Assembly: GCF_951230165.1 (NCBI RefSeq)
Contig: NZ_CATNVB010000027.1
Span: forward strand, 1 to 33,051
Length of the DNA stretch: 33,051 bases
Source: Lentilactobacillus sp. Marseille-Q4993
GTDB lineage: Bacteria; Bacillota; Bacilli; Lactobacillales; Lactobacillaceae
Direction of reading: 5' to 3'
The number at the start of each line of letters is the position of its first letter. Position 1 is the stretch's first letter. Shown piece after piece: positions 1-6,605 of the stretch. The notes under the pieces were generated by a model. It did no database searches. It had not been told where the DNA came from and saw only the letters and a list, made by a program, of their open reading frames with translations. The translations under genes and the position numbers were made by a program.

Positions 1-118
1 CATCAATGATAAAGAAATTCAGGGCTATGCCACTAAGTTGAACAAGCGTCCTCGTAAATGTCTAGGCTGGAAAACACCATATGAGTCATTCTTTAACGTT
101 GCGTTGCACTTAATTTGA
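1..118 (+). CDS. IS30-family transposase, C-terminal end (partial)
   Basis: The open frame enters from the left edge (first full codon at base 2) and stops with TGA at 116-118, giving 38 residues. The motifs RPRKCLGWKTPYE and a final ALHLI are typical of the C-terminus of IS30-family (DDE) transposases, which cut and join insertion-sequence ends. The catalytic core lies outside the window, so whether the element is intact cannot be judged. The stop codon lies within or against what looks like the terminal inverted repeat, as is usual in this family. Confidence 0.8.
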   Translation, partial: INDKEIQGYATKLNKRPRKCLGWKTPYESFFNVALHLI

Positions 119-453: not shown

Positions 454-482
454 TTGACAAATCACCACCACTCCATTAGTAT
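454..482 (+). promoter_or_regulatory. Promoter of the aromatic leader-peptide/attenuator transcript
   Basis: A consensus -35 box TTGACA (454-459) and a -10 box TAGTAT (477-482) are exactly 17 bases apart, so transcription should start near 489-490. This leaves a leader of about 230 nt before the membrane protein gene at 718. Confidence 0.75.
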
Positions 483-514
483 TAGTCTCAACATATTCTA
501 AGGAGTTTTTAATT

Positions 515-580
515 ATGAAATTAATCGCAAAAACTCAATTGAATACCCGCAACTTTTGGTTCTGGTTTTTTGACAACTGA
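515..580 (+). CDS. 21-residue leader peptide with Phe/Trp run
   Basis: ATG at 515 is preceded by an excellent ribosome binding site AAGGAG (500-505, 9-base spacing) and the frame ends with TGA at 578-580. Residues 13-21 read NFWFWFFDN, so codons 14-19 are six consecutive Phe/Trp codons (four Phe, two Trp). The short length, the starvation-sensing codon run and the mutually exclusive stems just downstream match the leader peptides of ribosome-mediated attenuators such as E. coli trpL and pheL. The peptide itself probably has no function beyond being translated. The downstream gene is a PTS_EIIC_2-family membrane protein, not a biosynthetic gene. I do not recognise a published name for it. Confidence 0.75.
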   Translation: MKLIAKTQLNTRNFWFWFFDN

Positions 581-693
581 TCTGTCAATGCCAGAACGTT
601 TTCGCATGAACCTGGCCGCGCAGATCAGTAATCGACTGCGCGGGTGATAATACCTACCCATCCTCGCAGTCTCACTGGCTTCGGGGCTTTTTT
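576..693 (+). promoter_or_regulatory. Attenuator-like set of competing RNA stems
   Basis: Four segments pair in a chain. Segment 1 (576-584) pairs over 9 bp with segment 2 (621-629). Segment 2' (616-623) pairs over 8 bp with segment 3 (636-643). Segment 3' (634-640) pairs over 7 bp with segment 4 (665-671), helped by GGGT/ACCC inside (642-645/656-659) and CAGT/ACTG outside (626-629/674-677). A fifth, weaker hairpin, 668-673 with 683-688 (two G-U pairs), sits flush against the T-run 688-693. Segment 1 overlaps the stop codon of the Phe/Trp leader peptide. Stem 3:4 ends about ten bases before the T-run, so either 3:4 or 4:5 may be the terminator and the sign of control is uncertain. Confidence 0.7.
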
Positions 694-717
694 ATTACTA
701 AAAATGAGGTGAAGAGA

Positions 718-1767
718 ATGGATAGAATTAGACTAGATAAGAGGATTGTATTAAACACGTTGAATGGGTTATCGATGGGGATCATTATTGCTTTGATTCC
801 CAGTGCATTACTGAATGAGTTGGTCAAGGTGTTAATGCCTTCATACCCGCAACTTTCGGTGGTGTTAACGATGACTAACCTCGCGATGGTAACCTTGCCT
901 GCAGTTAGTGCTTTGTGTGTGGGAATGCTGGGCAAGTTTTCTCCAATTCAAACTGGAGCTTTAGTTTTAGCATCTGTGATGGGAGCTGGCAACTTTAAAA
1001 TGGTAGGGGATCACTTCGTGGCTGCCGGTACAGGAGATGTTATCAACATTGCCCTTACGATTATGGTGGGTTATGTTTTAATTGCGGTTCTTGGCCAAAA
1101 ATTAAAAGCGTACACCATCCTACTTGTCCCAGCGATCGTAATGTTGGTTGCTGGTGGAATTGGGATGATGACGCTTAAACCAGTTGCTAGTTTTACTAAA
1201 ATATTAGGAATTGGGATCAATCAACTAACTGAGCTCCAACCGCTATTGATGGGAACATTGCTTGGTATTGTGTTTGCGTTGTTGATTGTTTCACCAGTTT
1301 CATCGGTTGGAATTGCTACGGCAATCGGTTTGACGGGCGTTGCTGCTGGGGCTGCTAACTTAGGAATCGTGGCAGCAGCGTTCTCGCTTGCTATTTATGG
1401 CTGGAAAGCTAACACCGTTGGCACTTCATTAGCTCATTTCCTCGGCTCACCTAAAATGCAAATGGCAAACCTAATGGCGAACCCCAAATTACTATTGCCA
1501 GTGATGATAAACGCTGGAATAATGGGATTCTTGGCATCGTTATTTGGAATTACGGGAACTCCAAGCAGTGCTGGCTTTGGCTTTGCGGGACTGATTGGGC
1601 CGATTGCTGCGGTAAATGGGATGGAAGAAGTGACGGTTGTTGGTTTGCTATTAATTGTTACTTTGTTTGTCATCGTCCCAGTGATTCTTGGCTTAGTATC
1701 AAATGCTCTTTTCAACCGGCAAATGAGCTATTTCCAAGCCAAGGATTTTGAACTAGATTACCGTTAG
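718..1767 (+). CDS. PTS_EIIC_2-family integral membrane protein
   Basis: The 349-residue, very hydrophobic protein has about eight to ten membrane segments and repeated Gly/Ala-rich stretches (for example the MGAGNFK and AGFGFAGLIGPIAAVNG regions). It resembles the PTS_EIIC_2 group of stand-alone permease-like proteins (Pfam PF13303 from memory). No IIA or IIB domain is present or nearby, so sugar phosphorylation is not implied and the substrate is unknown. I choose ATG 718 because AGGTGA (707-712) lies five bases upstream; an in-frame GTG at 709 has no ribosome binding site. The gene follows a Phe/Trp leader peptide and attenuator, which points to control by aromatic amino acid supply and perhaps to transport of such a compound (inference). 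Its stop overlaps by four bases the stop of the convergent histidine kinase gene. Confidence 0.8.
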   Translation: MDRIRLDKRIVLNTLNGLSMGIIIALIPSALLNELVKVLMPSYPQLSVVLTMTNLAMVTLPAVSALCVGMLGKFSPIQTGALVLASVMGAGNFKMVGDHFVAAGTGDVINIALTIMVGYVLIAVLGQKLKAYTILLVPAIVMLVAGGIGMMTLKPVASFTKILGIGINQLTELQPLLMGTLLGIVFALLIVSPVSSVGIATAIGLTGVAAGAANLGIVAAAFSLAIYGWKANTVGTSLAHFLGSPKMQMANLMANPKLLLPVMINAGIMGFLASLFGITGTPSSAGFGFAGLIGPIAAVNGMEEVTVVGLLLIVTLFVIVPVILGLVSNALFNRQMSYFQAKDFELDYR

Positions 1768-2798
1768 TCTTTTGGCAAACTGATTTTAAAAGTACTGCCG
1801 ACACCGAGAGTGCTGGAAACACTCAGCTTTCCACCAAGTCGTTCGATAAGATCCTTGGCAATGTAGAGGCCAAGACCGTGCCCACCAGTTGTCATATTTC
1901 TTGATTCTTCGACCCGGTATAGCCGATTAAAGATTTTAGCCTGTTCGGCGTTAGGAATCCCAATGCCCTCGTCAGCAATTTTGATTATGATGTTTCCAGT
2001 TTGGATAGCGCTACTAATGTTGATTGCCGTTCCTGGTTGGGAATACTTAAACGCATTATTTACGAGATTAAAGATTACCCGAGATAACTTATTACCATCG
2101 GTTACCACTTGGTTTGCGTTATCGGCAATGTTAACGCTGATATCCCTGTTCTCACGGTCAATTTGAACCTGGAAACCAGAAAGAACGTTGATAATAAGTT
2201 TGTCTAACAGAATTGGTTCTCGTTTAATTTCGTAATGGTTTTCGTCAAACTTACTTGAACGAATATAATCTAACTCTTCAACCAGTTGATTTAGCCTAGT
2301 GGTCTGGCTGTCAATGGTTTCAAAGTAGTTTTGGTACTGGTCGGGGGAAATGACCCCATCCATAATCGCTTCAATGGTGGCCTTGATTGAAGAAATTGGC
2401 GTTTTGATATCGTGGGATAGTTGCGCAATCATCATGTCCTTTTCGCGCTCACTATCCTTTAGTTTAGAAAATGTTTGATCCAGACTAACCGTCATTTGAT
2501 TAAAGTCATTGGCAAGTTCCTTAAACTCAGATGGGCTTTTGACCCCGGTAATGGGATTGAACTTGTTCTCAGCAATGTTTTTACTCAGAGCTTTGAACTT
2601 ATCCAATGAGCTGAATGTTCTGTGAAGGAGCAACATTGCCACGATGATTCCAATAATACTGGCTGCCACCGTGATTTCGATAATTATGGTGGCACTTTTA
2701 TTATCGATCACCATTTTGTTGACTGCCCAAATAACGGCTGTAATGGTGATTCCAATTGAAATTAGGTAGCTGAGGATGACTAGATATCTTAGTTTCAT
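1764..2798 (-). CDS. Sensor histidine kinase
   Basis: The 344-residue membrane kinase would autophosphorylate and pass phosphate to the adjacent regulator. Two membrane helices (about residues 5-27 and 36-58) enclose an outside loop of only about eight residues, the layout of intramembrane-sensing kinases. A HAMP-like linker (about 60-115) follows. Then come the H box SHDIKTPISS with His129, the N box NLVNNAFKYS, and the G boxes DEGIGIP and GGHGLGLYIAKDL of the ATPase domain. Its ATG overlaps the stop of the regulator gene by four bases, so the two are translationally coupled. With no extracellular sensor domain, the signal may be membrane stress or a partner membrane protein; the substrate-like signal is unknown. 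Confidence 0.93.
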   Translation of the reverse strand: MKLRYLVILSYLISIGITITAVIWAVNKMVIDNKSATIIIEITVAASIIGIIVAMLLLHRTFSSLDKFKALSKNIAENKFNPITGVKSPSEFKELANDFNQMTVSLDQTFSKLKDSEREKDMMIAQLSHDIKTPISSIKATIEAIMDGVISPDQYQNYFETIDSQTTRLNQLVEELDYIRSSKFDENHYEIKREPILLDKLIINVLSGFQVQIDRENRDISVNIADNANQVVTDGNKLSRVIFNLVNNAFKYSQPGTAINISSAIQTGNIIIKIADEGIGIPNAEQAKIFNRLYRVEESRNMTTGGHGLGLYIAKDLIERLGGKLSVSSTLGVGSTFKISLPKD

Positions 2799-3496
2799 TG
2801 CGGTTCCTCCAGTTTATACCCCACACTCCAGACGGTCTTTAGGACTGGGGTCTTGTCAGTTCCCACTTTGGTAAGCTGGTTTCGAATATCGTGCACATGA
2901 ACGTTCAGGGTATTGGCATCGTCAACAAAGTCTTCTTGCCAAACTAGGTCATAGAGTTCGGACTTCGAAAAAACTCGTTTTGGGTTTTGAGCTAAAACCC
3001 ACAGCAAGTCGAATTCCTTGGCAGTTAGAGTTAGTGACTGGTTATTGATGGATGCCTCCCTAGCGTCGTGGTCAACAACAAGGTCGCCAATCGAAATCTG
3101 GTTTGCGTTATTGGTTTCCTTTCCACCATTGACCCGTTTCAAAATGTTGGTGATTCTTAAAACTAGTTCGCGGGGACTAAATGGTTTGGTAATATAGTCA
3201 TCTGCCCCGAGGGTTAGCGAGTAAATTTTATCCTGATCCGATGTTTTTGCCGTGAAGAACAGGAATGGTTGGTCAGGATTTTTATCGATTACTTCGTTAA
3301 TGAAATCGTAGCCGTCTAGTTCGGGCATCATGATGTCAGTTGCGATTAGGTCGACTGAATGGTTTTCCAACCAATCAAGGGCTTCAATTCCGTTGGTCGA
3401 AGTTTGGACGTCATAGCCAGCTCTAGTTAGGTACTTTGCGTTAATATCAGTGATTGATGGTTCATCGTCTACCAAGAGAATTGTTTGGCTCATCAT
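2795..3496 (-). CDS. OmpR/PhoB-family response regulator
   Basis: The 233-residue regulator has a receiver domain with acidic pocket D10/D11, phosphoacceptor D54 (in ATDIMMPELDG), T82 and K104 (in ITKPF), followed by a winged-helix DNA-binding domain from about residue 133 to the end (SLTLTAKEFDLLWVLAQN, NVHVHDIRNQL, TVWSVGYKL). ATG 3496 follows AGGAGG by six bases; ATG 3493 is an alternative. It forms an operon with the histidine kinase. The ribosome binding site directly follows the U-run of the upstream gene's terminator, leaving no room for a separate promoter, so expression probably depends on read-through from the secreted WxL-like gene. Phased repeats in that gene's promoter are candidate binding sites for this regulator. 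Confidence 0.95.
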   Translation of the reverse strand: MMSQTILLVDDEPSITDINAKYLTRAGYDVQTSTNGIEALDWLENHSVDLIATDIMMPELDGYDFINEVIDKNPDQPFLFFTAKTSDQDKIYSLTLGADDYITKPFSPRELVLRITNILKRVNGGKETNNANQISIGDLVVDHDAREASINNQSLTLTAKEFDLLWVLAQNPKRVFSKSELYDLVWQEDFVDDANTLNVHVHDIRNQLTKVGTDKTPVLKTVWSVGYKLEEPQ

Positions 3497-3508
3497 TGAG
3501 CACCTCCT

Positions 3509-3559
3509 AAAAAAACAAGCGAAGTTATACTTTTAAAATAAGTATATCTTCGCTTGTTT
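3509..3559 (-). terminator. Terminator between the WxL-like gene and the regulator gene
   Basis: A near-perfect 20-bp inverted repeat (3513-3532 with 3540-3559, one mismatch, 7-base loop) is followed on the minus strand by seven T residues (3515-3509). The regulator's AGGAGG begins immediately after the T-run. The element can both end the WxL-like transcript and meter read-through into the two-component operon. Confidence 0.85.
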
Positions 3560-3579
3560 AAATTCAAAGAATTTTGGCT

Positions 3580-4500
3580 TTAGCTTAAGTCGCTAGGAGT
3601 TCTCATTGCGTTGGCATTGGCTTTTGAGGCACTTGCGTTGGCATTGTTAGCGAGGGTAAATACCAAGTTGGCTTGGTAGGTACCAGCCTTGACGTTCTTA
3701 GCCTTGGCGAAGAGAAGTTTAACGTCTTTCTTTGAGATTTTGACCATTGCTTCGCCCTTTGCACCAGCTTTGCCAGTTAGGATTGCTTTAGCTTTACCAG
3801 TGCTTGAGTATAATTTGGCACTAGTTCCCATGGCATCCTTAGCTCCCCTAGTATTGATCGATAATCTGGCTTTTGAAAGGGTCTTACCCATCGAGTTCTT
3901 GAACGATGAGAGGGAGGCAAATAGCTTGTAGCCATTGTTGGTGTCCATTCGGTTAGCGTTGACTTTGATTGCGCCCATTGAGTTACCGTCATACGCCATC
4001 TTGCCAGCACTTGCTCCTTTATTTACCGTATAGCCCATCAAACTAGCTGTCTGGTTCATCTTTGCTAGTTTCATTTTGCTTAACCCAGTAAAGCTTAAGT
4101 TAGGAACAGCGTCCAAACGAGGACCAACCCCTGGTTGCTTTCTTGTCGTGGTATTAGTCTTGATAGTTTTGATTTTATAGGTTTTGCCCTTTTTTGTATC
4201 GGAAACCTTAACTTGGATGGTTGAGATTGCGGCTGCGGCACTCTTACCATTCCGGGGGCCGAGGTACTTAGTTCCACCTGAGTAGTAACCTGCTCCGCTC
4301 ATTCCGTCGGCGATGTTGTATCCCTTATTTGAGGTGTAAGTAACTGATCCCATTGGGTCGAGTTCGTTGTGAGCGATGCCCTTGTATGTTGGAAATGAAG
4401 CAGCTGCCTTAGCGGTTTGGTTTCCCCCGGCAATACTTAGTCCAACTAATCCAGAAACTGAAGCTGCCCCAACCAATAATACTTTCTTTAAGTTCTTCAT
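3580..4500 (-). CDS. Secreted WxL-like cell-surface protein
   Basis: The 306-residue protein starts with a Sec signal peptide (basic MKNLKKVLL, hydrophobic core, cleavage near TAKAA-A at about residue 34). There is no LPxTG motif. The C-terminal half (GYKLFASLSSF, LSKARLSINTRG, KAKNVKAGTYQANLVFTLAN) has the spacing and ending of WxL domains, which bind peptidoglycan non-covalently, but the defining Trp-x-Leu is replaced by YKLFASL. This makes it a degenerate or divergent WxL member. The mature protein is rich in Lys, Asn and Ala. ATG 4500 has a strong AGGAGGA upstream. The promoter carries 11-bp-phased repeats fitting control by the neighbouring OmpR-type regulator. Function beyond surface attachment is not known. 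Confidence 0.65.
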   Translation of the reverse strand: MKNLKKVLLVGAASVSGLVGLSIAGGNQTAKAAASFPTYKGIAHNELDPMGSVTYTSNKGYNIADGMSGAGYYSGGTKYLGPRNGKSAAAAISTIQVKVSDTKKGKTYKIKTIKTNTTTRKQPGVGPRLDAVPNLSFTGLSKMKLAKMNQTASLMGYTVNKGASAGKMAYDGNSMGAIKVNANRMDTNNGYKLFASLSSFKNSMGKTLSKARLSINTRGAKDAMGTSAKLYSSTGKAKAILTGKAGAKGEAMVKISKKDVKLLFAKAKNVKAGTYQANLVFTLANNANASASKANANAMRTPSDLS

Positions 4501-4545
4501 GATGATTCCTCCTAGAATGTTTTCTTTTTTTACTACGCTGAAAGA

Positions 4546-4598
4546 ATAACACTAGGAGTTTAACTAACTTGCTGGAATTTCTTAACTATCCCTTAACT
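4546..4598 (-). promoter_or_regulatory. Promoter with phased response-regulator repeats
   Basis: Read on the plus strand, CTTAACT occurs at 4581-4587 and 4592-4598 (11-bp period), and TTTAACT at 4559-4565, exactly two further periods away. Direct repeats at 11-bp spacing are the usual operator form of OmpR/PhoB-family regulators. On the minus strand a -10-like TGTTAT (4551-4546) lies 17 bases from a poor -35 (CAGCAA, 4574-4569). The repeats lie upstream of and around this weak -35, as in activator-dependent promoters. Confidence 0.55.
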
Positions 4599-4657
4599 GA
4601 TAATTATGAATTTATGATATTGATGAAAGAGTTGATGTATCAGTGGTTGAAGTAAAT

Positions 4658-4700
4658 AAAAAATCCTTAATCGATTCGTTTCTGAATGATTAAGGATTTT
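4658..4700 (-). terminator. Terminator of the QueT-family gene
   Basis: A perfect 13-bp inverted repeat (4660-4672 with 4688-4700) is followed on the minus strand by TTTTTTATTT. It lies just after the stop of the transporter gene. Confidence 0.85.
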
Positions 4701-4703
4701 ATC

Positions 4704-5222
4704 TTACTTCGTTAGGTCAATTGAAAGGTTAATAAAGTAAATTACGATAGCACCAAGCGCCATTGATCCAAATTCGCTGATTGCTAGGGATGCATAGCTA
4801 GCCCAGAAGGTTGGCCAAAATGCACCACTTCCAATGAAGGCAAGTTCGAACGCAATGATGAACATGAAGAACGTTCCAATCAGAACTGATAAAACTAGTT
4901 TGGCTGGAACCGAACTGATGTGTTTGGTAACTAAGTTAATCGTCAGCAACGCAATGAAAGTTTCAAAGGTTCCGATGAGCATGTCGATTGGGCCATTAGG
5001 TGAGGTCATGTTGGAGATGAAACAACCAAGAGTAATCGCCACAACATAGCGCTTATTAAACGGAGCAAGGTTATTAAGTCCCTCCGAAAGCCGGAATTGA
5101 ATGGGACCATAACTAAAGGGTGCCAAGACCATCGTCATTACGATGTAGAGTGCAGCAACAACGGCAGCCTTAACTAAATCAAGTAGGCTATCGATGCCAA
5201 ATAAAGTCGTCTTAGAATTCAT
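4704..5222 (-). CDS. queT: QueT-family transporter (queuosine precursor ECF S component)
   Basis: The 172-residue protein has about five membrane helices. Motifs AALYIVMTMVLAPFSYGPIQFRLSEGLN, FISNMTSPNGPIDML-like (NGPIDMLIGT) and GSMALGA match the QueT family, substrate-binding subunits of energy-coupling-factor transporters thought to import queuine or preQ1-like precursors. It would need the shared EcfAA'T module, which is not in this window. The start is ATG 5222 with AAGGAAGG upstream. It lies 75 bases downstream of the purine permease gene on the same strand, so both may be co-transcribed. I looked for a preQ1 riboswitch in the gap and did not see one. Confidence 0.85.
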   Translation of the reverse strand: MNSKTTLFGIDSLLDLVKAAVVAALYIVMTMVLAPFSYGPIQFRLSEGLNNLAPFNKRYVVAITLGCFISNMTSPNGPIDMLIGTFETFIALLTINLVTKHISSVPAKLVLSVLIGTFFMFIIAFELAFIGSGAFWPTFWASYASLAISEFGSMALGAIVIYFINLSIDLTK

Positions 5223-5297
5223 AAAAATTCCTTCCTTTAAGATATTCAGTTTTAAACAACCATATAACCTTACCCCAAAATTAGCGATGGGTCAAAG

Positions 5298-6605
5298 TTA
5301 CTTTGCCTCTAGGATCCAGAGGAAGATAACGAAGATAACTGCTAGGGCGTACATCATTGGGCCAACTTCTTTACCTCGTTTGGCAGCGATCATTGTGATT
5401 GGGTAAGTAATAAAGCCAAGAGCGATACCATCGGCGATACTGTATGTGAACGGCATACCAACCAATGTGATAAAGGCTGGCGCAGCAATTTCAAACTGTT
5501 CCCAGTGAACGTTTTTAAGTGATTGAGCCATCAAAACACCGACAATAATCAGTGCAGGGGCGGTAACTTGGCTGGTAATTACAGTCAACATTGGTGAGAA
5601 GAAAGCCCCGATTACGAAGAGAATCCCGACAATGATGGTAGTAAAACCAGTCCGGCCACCAATAGCGATACCGGCTGATGATTCAACGAAAGCCCCCATT
5701 GGTGATGTACCAAGAATTGAACCGACCATCATTGTTGAAGAGTCAGCTACAAGTGCTTTACCAATGTTAGGGATTTTATTGTTTTTGATAAAGCCGGCTT
5801 GTTCAGCTAGACCAACTAAAGTTCCTGCGGTATCAAAGAAGGTAACTAACAGGAAGGTTAGGACAACAACAATTAACTGAATTGAGTTGATGTCTGGAAC
5901 ATGGGCGATTGCAACCCCGAAGGTTGACTTGATGCTAGGCATTGCTGAAACGATTTGGTGAGGAACTGGAATCAATCCAGTAAATAAACCAAGAAGTGAG
6001 TTTAAAACCATTCCGATGAAAATAGCACCAGGGACTCTCATACTCATTAATACTAAGGTTACAAGCAGACCAAACACAGTTAGCCATGTAGTACCCGTAA
6101 AGGCGCCAAGACCCACAAGTGAGTCCTTATTGCTGACGATGATGCCACCTTCTGATAAACCGATTAGGGCAATGAATAGACCGATACCACCACCGATTGC
6201 TGACTTGAGATCAGCTGGAATGGCATCGATGATTCTCTCTCGAACCTTAGTTGCAGTTAGGATCACGAAAATGAATGAAGCAAGGAACACGCCGGCAAGG
6301 GCAGTTTCCCAAGGAACCTTCATTCCAATACATACTGAGTAAGCAAAGAATGCGTTTTGGCCTAAACTGGCAGAAATCGCAATTGGGTAGTTAGCTAAAA
6401 CGCCCATTACAAAACAACCAAAGGCTGATGCGAGGGCGGTCGCAGTGAACACGGCCCCCTTATCGATTCCTGAAGCGCCTAAAATATTAGGATTAACAAA
6501 TAGAATATATACCATTGATACAAAGGTAGTGATTCCCGCTAGGGTTTCCGTTTTGAAGTTGGTTCCCCGTTCCTCAAAACCGAAAAATTTACTGATTGAA
6601 TTCAC
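5298..6605 (-). CDS. NCS2-family hypoxanthine/guanine permease
   Basis: The 435-residue membrane permease of the AzgA/PbuG-PbuO branch of NCS2 imports hypoxanthine, guanine or adenine with protons. Diagnostic stretches are FFGFEERGTNFKTE-type N-terminus, AGITTFVSMVYILFVNP, SASLGQNAFFAY, FFDTAGTLVGLAEQAG and SPMGAFVESSAGIAIGGRTG. The length is normal for the family. The start is a GTG at 6605, supported by AAGGAG eight bases upstream; the next Met is about 30 residues in and would cut the first helix. A TATAAT (minus strand, 6698-6693) could be the -10 box, with a weak -35. No purine riboswitch was recognised in the leader. The exact purine cannot be chosen from sequence. Confidence 0.92.
   Translation of the reverse strand: MNSISKFFGFEERGTNFKTETLAGITTFVSMVYILFVNPNILGASGIDKGAVFTATALASAFGCFVMGVLANYPIAISASLGQNAFFAYSVCIGMKVPWETALAGVFLASFIFVILTATKVRERIIDAIPADLKSAIGGGIGLFIALIGLSEGGIIVSNKDSLVGLGAFTGTTWLTVFGLLVTLVLMSMRVPGAIFIGMVLNSLLGLFTGLIPVPHQIVSAMPSIKSTFGVAIAHVPDINSIQLIVVVLTFLLVTFFDTAGTLVGLAEQAGFIKNNKIPNIGKALVADSSTMMVGSILGTSPMGAFVESSAGIAIGGRTGFTTIIVGILFVIGAFFSPMLTVITSQVTAPALIIVGVLMAQSLKNVHWEQFEIAAPAFITLVGMPFTYSIADGIALGFITYPITMIAAKRGKEVGPMMYALAVIFVIFLWILEAK

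What the first reader, a model, noticed from the sequence alone, without database searches (positions are those of the whole stretch)
454..1767. Phe/Trp leader peptide and attenuator-like stems controlling a PTS_EIIC_2-family membrane protein
Seen: a consensus promoter, a well-initiated 21-codon frame with six consecutive Phe/Trp codons, then segments that pair 1:2 (9 bp), 2:3 (8 bp), 3:4 (7 bp plus side stems), a weaker 4:5 hairpin touching a T-run, and then the membrane gene at 718. Known: this is the plan of E. coli trpL/pheL attenuation, whereas Firmicutes normally use T-boxes or TRAP for aromatic amino acids. Inference: the permease-like protein is controlled by charged tRNA-Phe/tRNA-Trp and may move an aromatic compound. 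If 3:4 terminates, starvation turns the gene on (import). If 4:5 terminates, starvation turns it off, which would suit an exporter.
Basis: partly seen in the sequence, partly recalled or inferred. Interest (0 to 1): 0.88.

Follow-up and report, generated by a model that had tools for sequence, protein, structure and literature searches.

The report
Aromatic leader-peptide attenuator in lactobacilli
A short peptide gene packed with phenylalanine and tryptophan codons, followed by RNA stems that can switch shape, probably turns on a membrane transporter gene when these amino acids run short, and the same device sits before aromatic-amino-acid genes in many lactobacilli.

Summary
Window 515-580 encodes MKLIAKTQLNTRNFWFWFFDN*. 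Five overlapping, competing helices follow and end in an intrinsic terminator (662-693) before a stand-alone PTS_EIIC_2 membrane protein (718-1767). The same genome has a second copy (leader ...YYFWFF...) before a class I aminotransferase and a D-2-hydroxyacid dehydrogenase. In relatives aminotransferase, dehydrogenase and EIIC often share one operon behind such a leader; 36 of 46 Lactobacillaceae EIIC operons examined have one, against 6 of 225 control genes. Both alternative folds are kept across 26 leaders. The 5' arm of the first antiterminator lies on the leader stop codon, so the likely logic is: ribosome at stop gives terminator and OFF; ribosome stalled on Phe/Trp codons gives antiterminator and ON. 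Mechanically this is E. coli his/trp-type attenuation (recalled), so it is a new member of a known kind, in a T-box-rich genome; ten paper searches showed no report of it. Beyond the known are a likely role for an orphan 'PTS sugar' permease and a conserved Q-L-N motif before the aromatic run, hinting at a nascent-chain part. Nothing was tested experimentally.

The parts
454..482 (+). sigma-70-type promoter-like site TTGACA-17-TAGTAT
   Evidence: consensus scan only
500..505 (+). Shine-Dalgarno AAGGAG of the leader
   Evidence: largely conserved in the alignment
515..580 (+). leader peptide MKLIAKTQLNTRNFWFWFFDN*
   Evidence: homologous leaders
536..544 (+). QLN codons of the leader, conserved motif [QH][LM]N
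   Evidence: (40 of 58 leaders, 1.4 expected)
554..571 (+). six control codons F W F W F F
559..597 (+). hairpin P1 (559-565/591-597 and 570-575/583-588)
576..629 (+). antiterminator helix AT1 (576-585/620-629); its 5' arm contains the leader stop codon 578-580
616..643 (+). hairpin P2 (616-623/636-643), overlaps AT1 and AT2
634..671 (+). antiterminator helix AT2 (634-640/665-671), overlaps P2 and the terminator
662..693 (+). intrinsic terminator hairpin 662-686 with U-run 688-693
718..1767 (+). PTS_EIIC_2 (PF13303) membrane protein, EIIC-like fold, no EIIA/EIIB part

Best explanation
A ribosome-mediated transcription attenuator. RNA polymerase transcribes the leader while a ribosome translates it. 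With enough charged tRNA-Phe and tRNA-Trp the ribosome reaches the stop codon and covers the 5' arm of AT1; P2 then forms, the next arm is free, and the terminator stops transcription before the EIIC gene. When charged tRNA-Phe or tRNA-Trp is short, the ribosome stalls on codons 14-18, breaks P1 and leaves the AT1 arm free; AT1 forms, its 3' arm can no longer make P2, AT2 forms, the terminator cannot, and the gene is read. The EIIC protein is most likely a transporter of an aromatic 2-keto or 2-hydroxy acid or a related aromatic compound that works with the co-regulated aminotransferase and D-2-hydroxyacid dehydrogenase; import for salvage fits starvation-ON best. Shown by sequence: leader, helices, their covariation, the stop-codon overlap, the paralogous copy and the shared operons. 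Inferred: that it terminates and is relieved in vivo, the direction of transport, and the substrate.
For: Leader and stems in the window. Second copy in the same genome (73% identical over its match) with YYFWFF before aminotransferase and dehydrogenase. On 26 leaders: ON fold 92.1% of cells paired (slid 25-42%); OFF fold 96.7% (slid 35-53%), 58 doubly changed cells against 19.7 shuffled, 0 of 500 shuffles. AT1 arm on the stop codon better than shuffles at p<=0.05 in 29 of 58 leaders, including unrelated sequences. Terminator hairpin in 58 of 58 (L074 misplaced there, better placed). Folding: P2 favoured at stop over stall in 16 of 56, reverse 0; terminator arm more sequestered when stalled in 23 of 58, reverse 1. 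Window: AT1 0.98-0.99 for stalls on codons 14-17; P2 1.00 at stop against 0.58 stalled. Strict leader before 36 of 46 Lactobacillaceae EIIC operons (L117's looks spurious) against 6 of 225 control genes of all 80 loci. Aminotransferase and/or dehydrogenase next to EIIC in 33 of 80 loci.
Against: No experiment. In the window itself equilibrium folding separates the states weakly at the last step (terminator arm sequestered 0.88 stalled, 0.78 at stop, 0.88 without ribosome), P2 is more stable than AT1, and P1 does not hold AT1 off without a ribosome (AT1 0.99). 29 of 58 leaders show no significant AT1 by this test, among them most of the bee Lactobacillus group. The structures were drawn from members of the alignment; two of five covariation measures of the ON fold do not beat shuffles. 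Aminotransferase plus dehydrogenase could as well run towards aromatic lactates, which would suit induction by excess. 10 of 46 Lactobacillaceae and 33 of 34 other EIIC operons lack a strict leader.
Confidence: 0.75

Rival explanations
1. Same RNA switch, but the stall is caused by the nascent peptide when an aromatic amino acid or metabolite is abundant (TnaC-like), so the operon is induced by excess for breakdown to aromatic lactates and export.
For: [QH][LM]N is present in 40 of 58 leaders (1.4 expected) with four synonymous Leu codons plus Met; the four codons before it are free (pN/pS 0.95) and the motif is not (0.17, biased because leaders were picked for the motif). Aminotransferase plus D-2-hydroxyacid dehydrogenase plus exporter would be a breakdown set.
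Against: Motif missing in 18 of 58 leaders; runs of up to 7 aromatic codons are what codon sensing needs; shared ancestry inflates the motif count; I recognise no known arrest sequence (recalled, not searched).
Confidence: 0.15
2. Starvation-OFF attenuator for an exporter, as in the second branch of the first reader.
For: The terminator is the last hairpin, and this would follow if the stalled ribosome masked segment 1.
Against: Stop codon 578-580 lies in the AT1 5' arm 576-585; with the assumed footprint, stalls on codons 14-17 end before 576. Folding goes the other way, 23 against 1 of 58 and 16 against 0 of 56.
Confidence: 0.06
3. Metabolite riboswitch or protein-bound leader in which the short ORF is incidental.
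For: Weak full-length match 617-698 to Rfam trpB motif (24.2 bits, cut-off 59), whose authors call it a riboswitch candidate but do not exclude an attenuator (PMC11109978, passages).
Against: Aromatic runs kept while sequence and helices change; the trpB model fires at many sites, 55 of 60 relatives at E<=1 and 8 of 60 over its cut-off.
Confidence: 0.04

Closest known systems
E. coli his and trp/phe leader attenuators (recalled)
   Same: short peptide with a run of codons for the regulated amino acid; ribosome position chooses between alternative stems; his has the same six-arm relay A:B, C:D, E:F against B:C, D:E
   Different: no Rfam leader family matched here; mixed Phe/Trp/Tyr run; controls a permease and an aminotransferase-dehydrogenase operon, not a complete biosynthetic operon; in Lactobacillaceae
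Rfam RF01743 leu-phe_leader of Lactococcus lactis (table entry in PMC2864571, passages seen)
   Same: leader-peptide attenuator in lactic acid bacteria (by its name)
   Different: no match in the window at gathering or E<=10; in 60 relatives none over cut-off, two weak ones at E<=0.01; of 14 control genomes only Lactococcus lactis matches
uORFC-13-1, Phe uORF before aroF in Acholeplasma (PMC8632094, passages and one section)
   Same: Phe codon(s) in a short ORF before a terminator at an aromatic-pathway gene
   Different: other bacteria, other target gene; at least one Phe residue rather than a mixed run of six
His leader peptides in Firmicutes (PMC2965389, PMC9413887, passages)
   Same: regular leader-peptide attenuation replacing T-boxes in Firmicutes
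   Different: histidine; in Lactobacillales the second paper reports His T-boxes instead

Membership tests
ribosome-mediated (trp/his-type) transcription attenuator | short translated ORF rich in codons of the regulated amino acid | tested here: met
   58 leaders with 4-8 aromatic residues; translation itself not shown
ribosome-mediated (trp/his-type) transcription attenuator | mutually exclusive antiterminator and terminator | tested here: met
   (by sequence and covariation)
ribosome-mediated (trp/his-type) transcription attenuator | ribosome position relative to the arms can select the fold | tested here: met
   stop codon inside the AT1 arm in the window; 29 of 58 significant; model; weak at the last step in the window
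ribosome-mediated (trp/his-type) transcription attenuator | read-through rises when the cognate tRNA is uncharged | not testable with these tools
   needs reporter or term-seq
Rfam leu-phe_leader RF01743 | score over the family cut-off | tested here: not met
Rfam trpB motif RF04312 | score over the family cut-off of 59 bits | tested here: not met
   24.2 bits
T-box (RF00230) | T-box model match at the leader | tested here: not met
   the genome has 43 matches elsewhere, 14 over cut-off
PTS EIIC permease | EIIC fold | tested here: met
   (one hit at E<=0.001, PtsG model; other PTS IIC entries weaker)
PTS EIIC permease | associated EIIA and EIIB | tested here: inconclusive
   none fused; window neighbours 1764-6605 are kinase, regulator, WxL, QueT and permease; rest of the genome not searched

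The most novel reading that the evidence does not exclude
A family-wide aromatic attenuator of Lactobacillaceae in which control codons are joined to a conserved nascent-chain motif (Q/H-L-N) that tunes or causes the stall, so that one RNA switch reads both tRNA charging and a free aromatic metabolite, and by which an orphan 'PTS sugar permease' is revealed as the transporter of an aromatic 2-keto/2-hydroxy acid cycle.
Probability: 0.15. Interest if true: 0.85.

Novelty: new member of a known kind. Interest (0 to 1): 0.6.

Why it matters
It indicates that classical leader-peptide attenuation for aromatic amino acids is common in a bacterial family better known for T-boxes, and both appear in one genome: a T-box lies about 1.9 kb upstream of trpF on the same strand. 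It gives a testable function to PF13303 permeases, which the plasmid records listed name sugar transporters, and ties them to enzymes likely to make or use phenyllactate and indolelactate, compounds of interest in food and gut microbiology (recalled).

Tried and rejected
Known riboswitch, T-box or leader family at the window: no gathering match, nothing convincing at E<=10. Rfam regulators at 25 EIIC loci, most of them without a detected leader: tRNAs and one glycine riboswitch about 1 kb downstream of EIIC in L137, none upstream of EIIC. Auxotrophy test: PheA (PF00800) is absent from G000 and present in 19 of 201 family genomes; among the 29 genomes with the closest EIIC (E<1e-100) 4 have it, so no depletion, and the salvage idea is neither helped nor hurt. 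TyrA, TrpA and TrpF are present. A tree of 79 EIIC proteins leaves the window's branch unresolved and long (0.59) inside a set of 35 rows, 29 with leader; the leader label, which I assigned, needs 8 changes (26.7 when shuffled). The trpB Rfam model was dropped as unspecific. The short frame at window 2-115 gave no Pfam match.

The 58 leaders are my selection from those detected. Left out: L014, L016, L018, L023 (group), L036, L037, L041, L044, L050, L051, L056, L058 (copies of named species), L069, L073, L075, L077, L088 (near-copies), doubtful hits (L112, L117) and loci without a detected leader. One search was a first terminator pass that misplaced several hairpins (the window's among them); one search misplaced at least L002's; one search repeats it with a stricter rule and misplaces L074's. 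One search was a misregistered alignment, replaced. In one search the motif copy counted for L074 and L039 is an extra one further upstream.

Full report
WHAT IS THERE. The window is a whole contig (33,051 bases) of a 2.28-Mb genome. Its relatives G021, G008 and G022, listed as the same genus, carry leader peptides identical to those of Lentilactobacillus sunkii, L. kefiri and L. otakiensis, so I take the organism to be a Lentilactobacillus (inference). A promoter-like site (454-482), an SD and ATG (500-517) and a 21-codon frame with FWFWFF at codons 14-19 precede five helices. By chance such an ORF is rare: 3 of 150 shuffled windows hold one with six aromatic codons in a row. The leader RNA folds 4.2 sd better than its shuffles.

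A SECOND COPY AND A REGULON. The genome has one more copy at E<=0.001, 73% identical over the match: L002, leader MQINNVIQLNNTYYFWFFGQ*, before a class I aminotransferase (AT) and a D-2-hydroxyacid dehydrogenase (HADH). Among solved structures the AT is nearest to 4my5 (425.9 bits), then to entries named aspartate and aromatic aminotransferase. The HADH of Lacticaseibacillus zeae (L070) is nearest to D-lactate dehydrogenase 4xkj (371.9 bits), with D-2-hydroxyisocaproate dehydrogenase 1dxy at 184. An exact pattern for the P2 element occurs in 24 of 397 family genomes, its backward control in none, and only this genome has two. In the same genus the leaders found precede the AT; in G008, G021 and G022 EIIC follows some 2.4 kb further down.

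EIIC IN THE FAMILY. 99 of 201 family genomes encode an EIIC relative at E<=1e-20. Of the 30 best loci, 15 have an aromatic leader within the 1.5 kb held upstream. From named genomes the best 80 of 241 loci were kept. Labels come from BLAST to three reference proteins. Fourteen are AT-HADH-EIIC, 7 AT-EIIC, 2 EIIC-AT-HADH, 2 HADH-EIIC and 8 EIIC-HADH, so AT and/or HADH adjoin EIIC in 33 of 80; the rest have neither next to it. With a strict rule (SD, at least 5 aromatic residues, 3 in a row) a leader precedes 37 of 80 EIIC operons and 6 of 225 other genes of the same loci; the looser rule gives 42 and 19. Within Lactobacillaceae it is 36 of 46 (that of L117 looks spurious), elsewhere 1 of 34 (grouping by record titles). 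Examples: Pediococcus RYYFWFF, Lacticaseibacillus FYFWFF, bee Lactobacillus KYYFWYF, Fructilactobacillus FYFYFAWY, Liquorilactobacillus YYYFYFF, Agrilactobacillus RYYYFWFF. Outside the family Jeotgalibaca (FYFSYYF) passes the strict rule. Bifidobacterium xylocopae carries AT, HADH and EIIC behind a leader FSYWW and a GATCTGT/GCAGATC pair; it passes the loose rule only, and its pair is not better than shuffles (p 0.25). It suggests transfer of the whole unit (inference). The Clostridium, Exiguobacterium and Vagococcus loci show no strict leader.

STRUCTURE. On 26 leaders, mostly of the RYYFWFF type (A4), the read-through fold AT1+AT2 has 92.1% of cells paired (slid controls 25-42%) with 13 doubly changed cells against 6.5 in shuffles. 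Two of its five measures do not beat the shuffles (pairs with double change 405 of 500, pair types 294 of 500); many of its pairs hardly vary. The termination fold P1+P2+T has 96.7% paired (slid 35-53%), 11 doubly changed pairs, and 58 doubly changed cells against 19.7, with 0 of 500 shuffles on all five measures. The structures were drawn from members of the alignment, which favours them. Beyond that group, the arm at the stop codon finds a better partner than in shuffles at p<=0.05 in 29 of 58 leaders and p<=0.01 in 20, also with different letters: AGCATCTGTG/CACAGATGCT (L093), CTAATCTGTA/TGCAGATTAG (L095), GTATCTAA/TTAGATAC (L091 p 0.035; L087 and L099 p 0.06). In the 29 significant cases the arm starts 9 to 0 bases before the stop codon. 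All 58 have a terminator hairpin by the rule.

LOGIC. With a footprint to 12 bases past the first base of the A-site codon (recalled value), a ribosome at TGA 578 covers to 590 and hides the AT1 arm 576-585. Ribosomes on codons 14-17 end at 566-575 and leave it free. Folding with these limits: before the P2 3' arm is made, AT1 forms with 0.98-0.99 for codons 14-17, 0.69 for 18 and 0.38 for 19; once that arm is made, P2 is 1.00 at stop and 0.58 when stalled (window). P2 is favoured at stop in 16 of 56 leaders and when stalled in 0; the terminator arm is sequestered more when stalled in 23 of 58 and less in 1 (differences over 0.2). The remaining leaders do not discriminate in this equilibrium model, and in the window the last step differs little (0.88 against 0.78). 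The direction, starvation gives read-through, is therefore supported but modelled, not measured.

WHICH SIGNAL AND WHICH CARGO. The window's leader is the only one of 58 without Tyr. The genome has a cluster with TyrA and other shikimate genes (names from sequence and recall), TrpA and TrpF, but no PheA by PF00800 (draft of 75 contigs, 99.57% complete). A T-box at C10:60736-61000 lies upstream of trpF on the same strand, so both sensing systems occur together. EIIC has an EIIC-type fold (pLDDT 88.9; only the PtsG model passes E<=0.001, other PTS IIC entries follow). Its company suggests aromatic 2-keto or 2-hydroxy acids. Import for salvage fits starvation-ON; export of aromatic lactates would need induction by excess. 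This choice is open.

A CONSERVED PEPTIDE MOTIF. [QH][LM]N occurs in 40 of 58 leaders (1.4 expected after residue shuffling), with Leu written TTG, TTA, CTG or CTT and Met in five of the copies counted (for L074 and L039 an extra upstream copy was counted). Before it the peptide is free (pN/pS 0.95); in it 0.17; in the first four codons of the aromatic run 0.28 (leaders chosen for the motif, so biased). Shared ancestry inflates the count. If real, it is not expected from codon sensing alone and points to the nascent chain.

LITERATURE. Ten searches of the held library showed, in the listings seen (often the top 12-20 of many), no report of aromatic leader peptides in Lactobacillaceae. The one paper holding PF13303 was not opened. 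Most subscription papers are not held. Opened: PMC2965389, PMC9413887, PMC11109978, PMC2864571 (passages), PMC8632094 (passages and one section), PMC3616900 (term search, no hits). Precedents are the leu-phe_leader of Lactococcus lactis, His leaders of other Firmicutes and a Phe uORF in Acholeplasma.

VERDICT. Real, conserved, and very probably a regulatory leader of the classical attenuation kind. New, as far as searched, are its place, its regulon, the function it suggests for an orphan permease, and the QLN hint.

Noticed in passing
window 2-118: Open frame ending ...LNKRPRKCLGWKTPYESFFNVALHLI* looks like the C-terminus of an IS30-type transposase (recalled; no Pfam match); the contig begins here, so a mobile element may lie just upstream of the attenuator and EIIC.
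   Followed up: partly
L092, about 2390-2560: Bifidobacterium xylocopae carries a leader with FSYWW and an AT-HADH-EIIC gene order, possibly a transfer of a complete regulated unit into Actinomycetota; its antiterminator pair is not better than shuffles.
   Followed up: partly
L011, L013, L017: In three leaders of the same genus the TGA inside the AT1 arm is lost and the peptide runs on to a later stop, a natural variant for testing the role of the stop position.
   Followed up: no
L199 3833-5242: An amino acid permease (PF13520, 203 bits) follows aminotransferase and dehydrogenase in the window's genome after a gap of about 130 bases.
   Followed up: no
L002 636-759: Lacto-3 / Ref68 small RNA (101.8 bits) lies about 760 bases upstream of the second leader.
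   Followed up: no
L003, L004, L005, L012: Here the aminotransferase start lies roughly 150 to 510 bases beyond the terminator instead of close behind it.
   Followed up: no
plasmids collection: 234 plasmid records, 153 of them Enterococcus, encode homologues of the EIIC protein, 233 of them under 60% identity; the 12 listed are annotated PTS sugar transporter subunit IIC.
   Followed up: no
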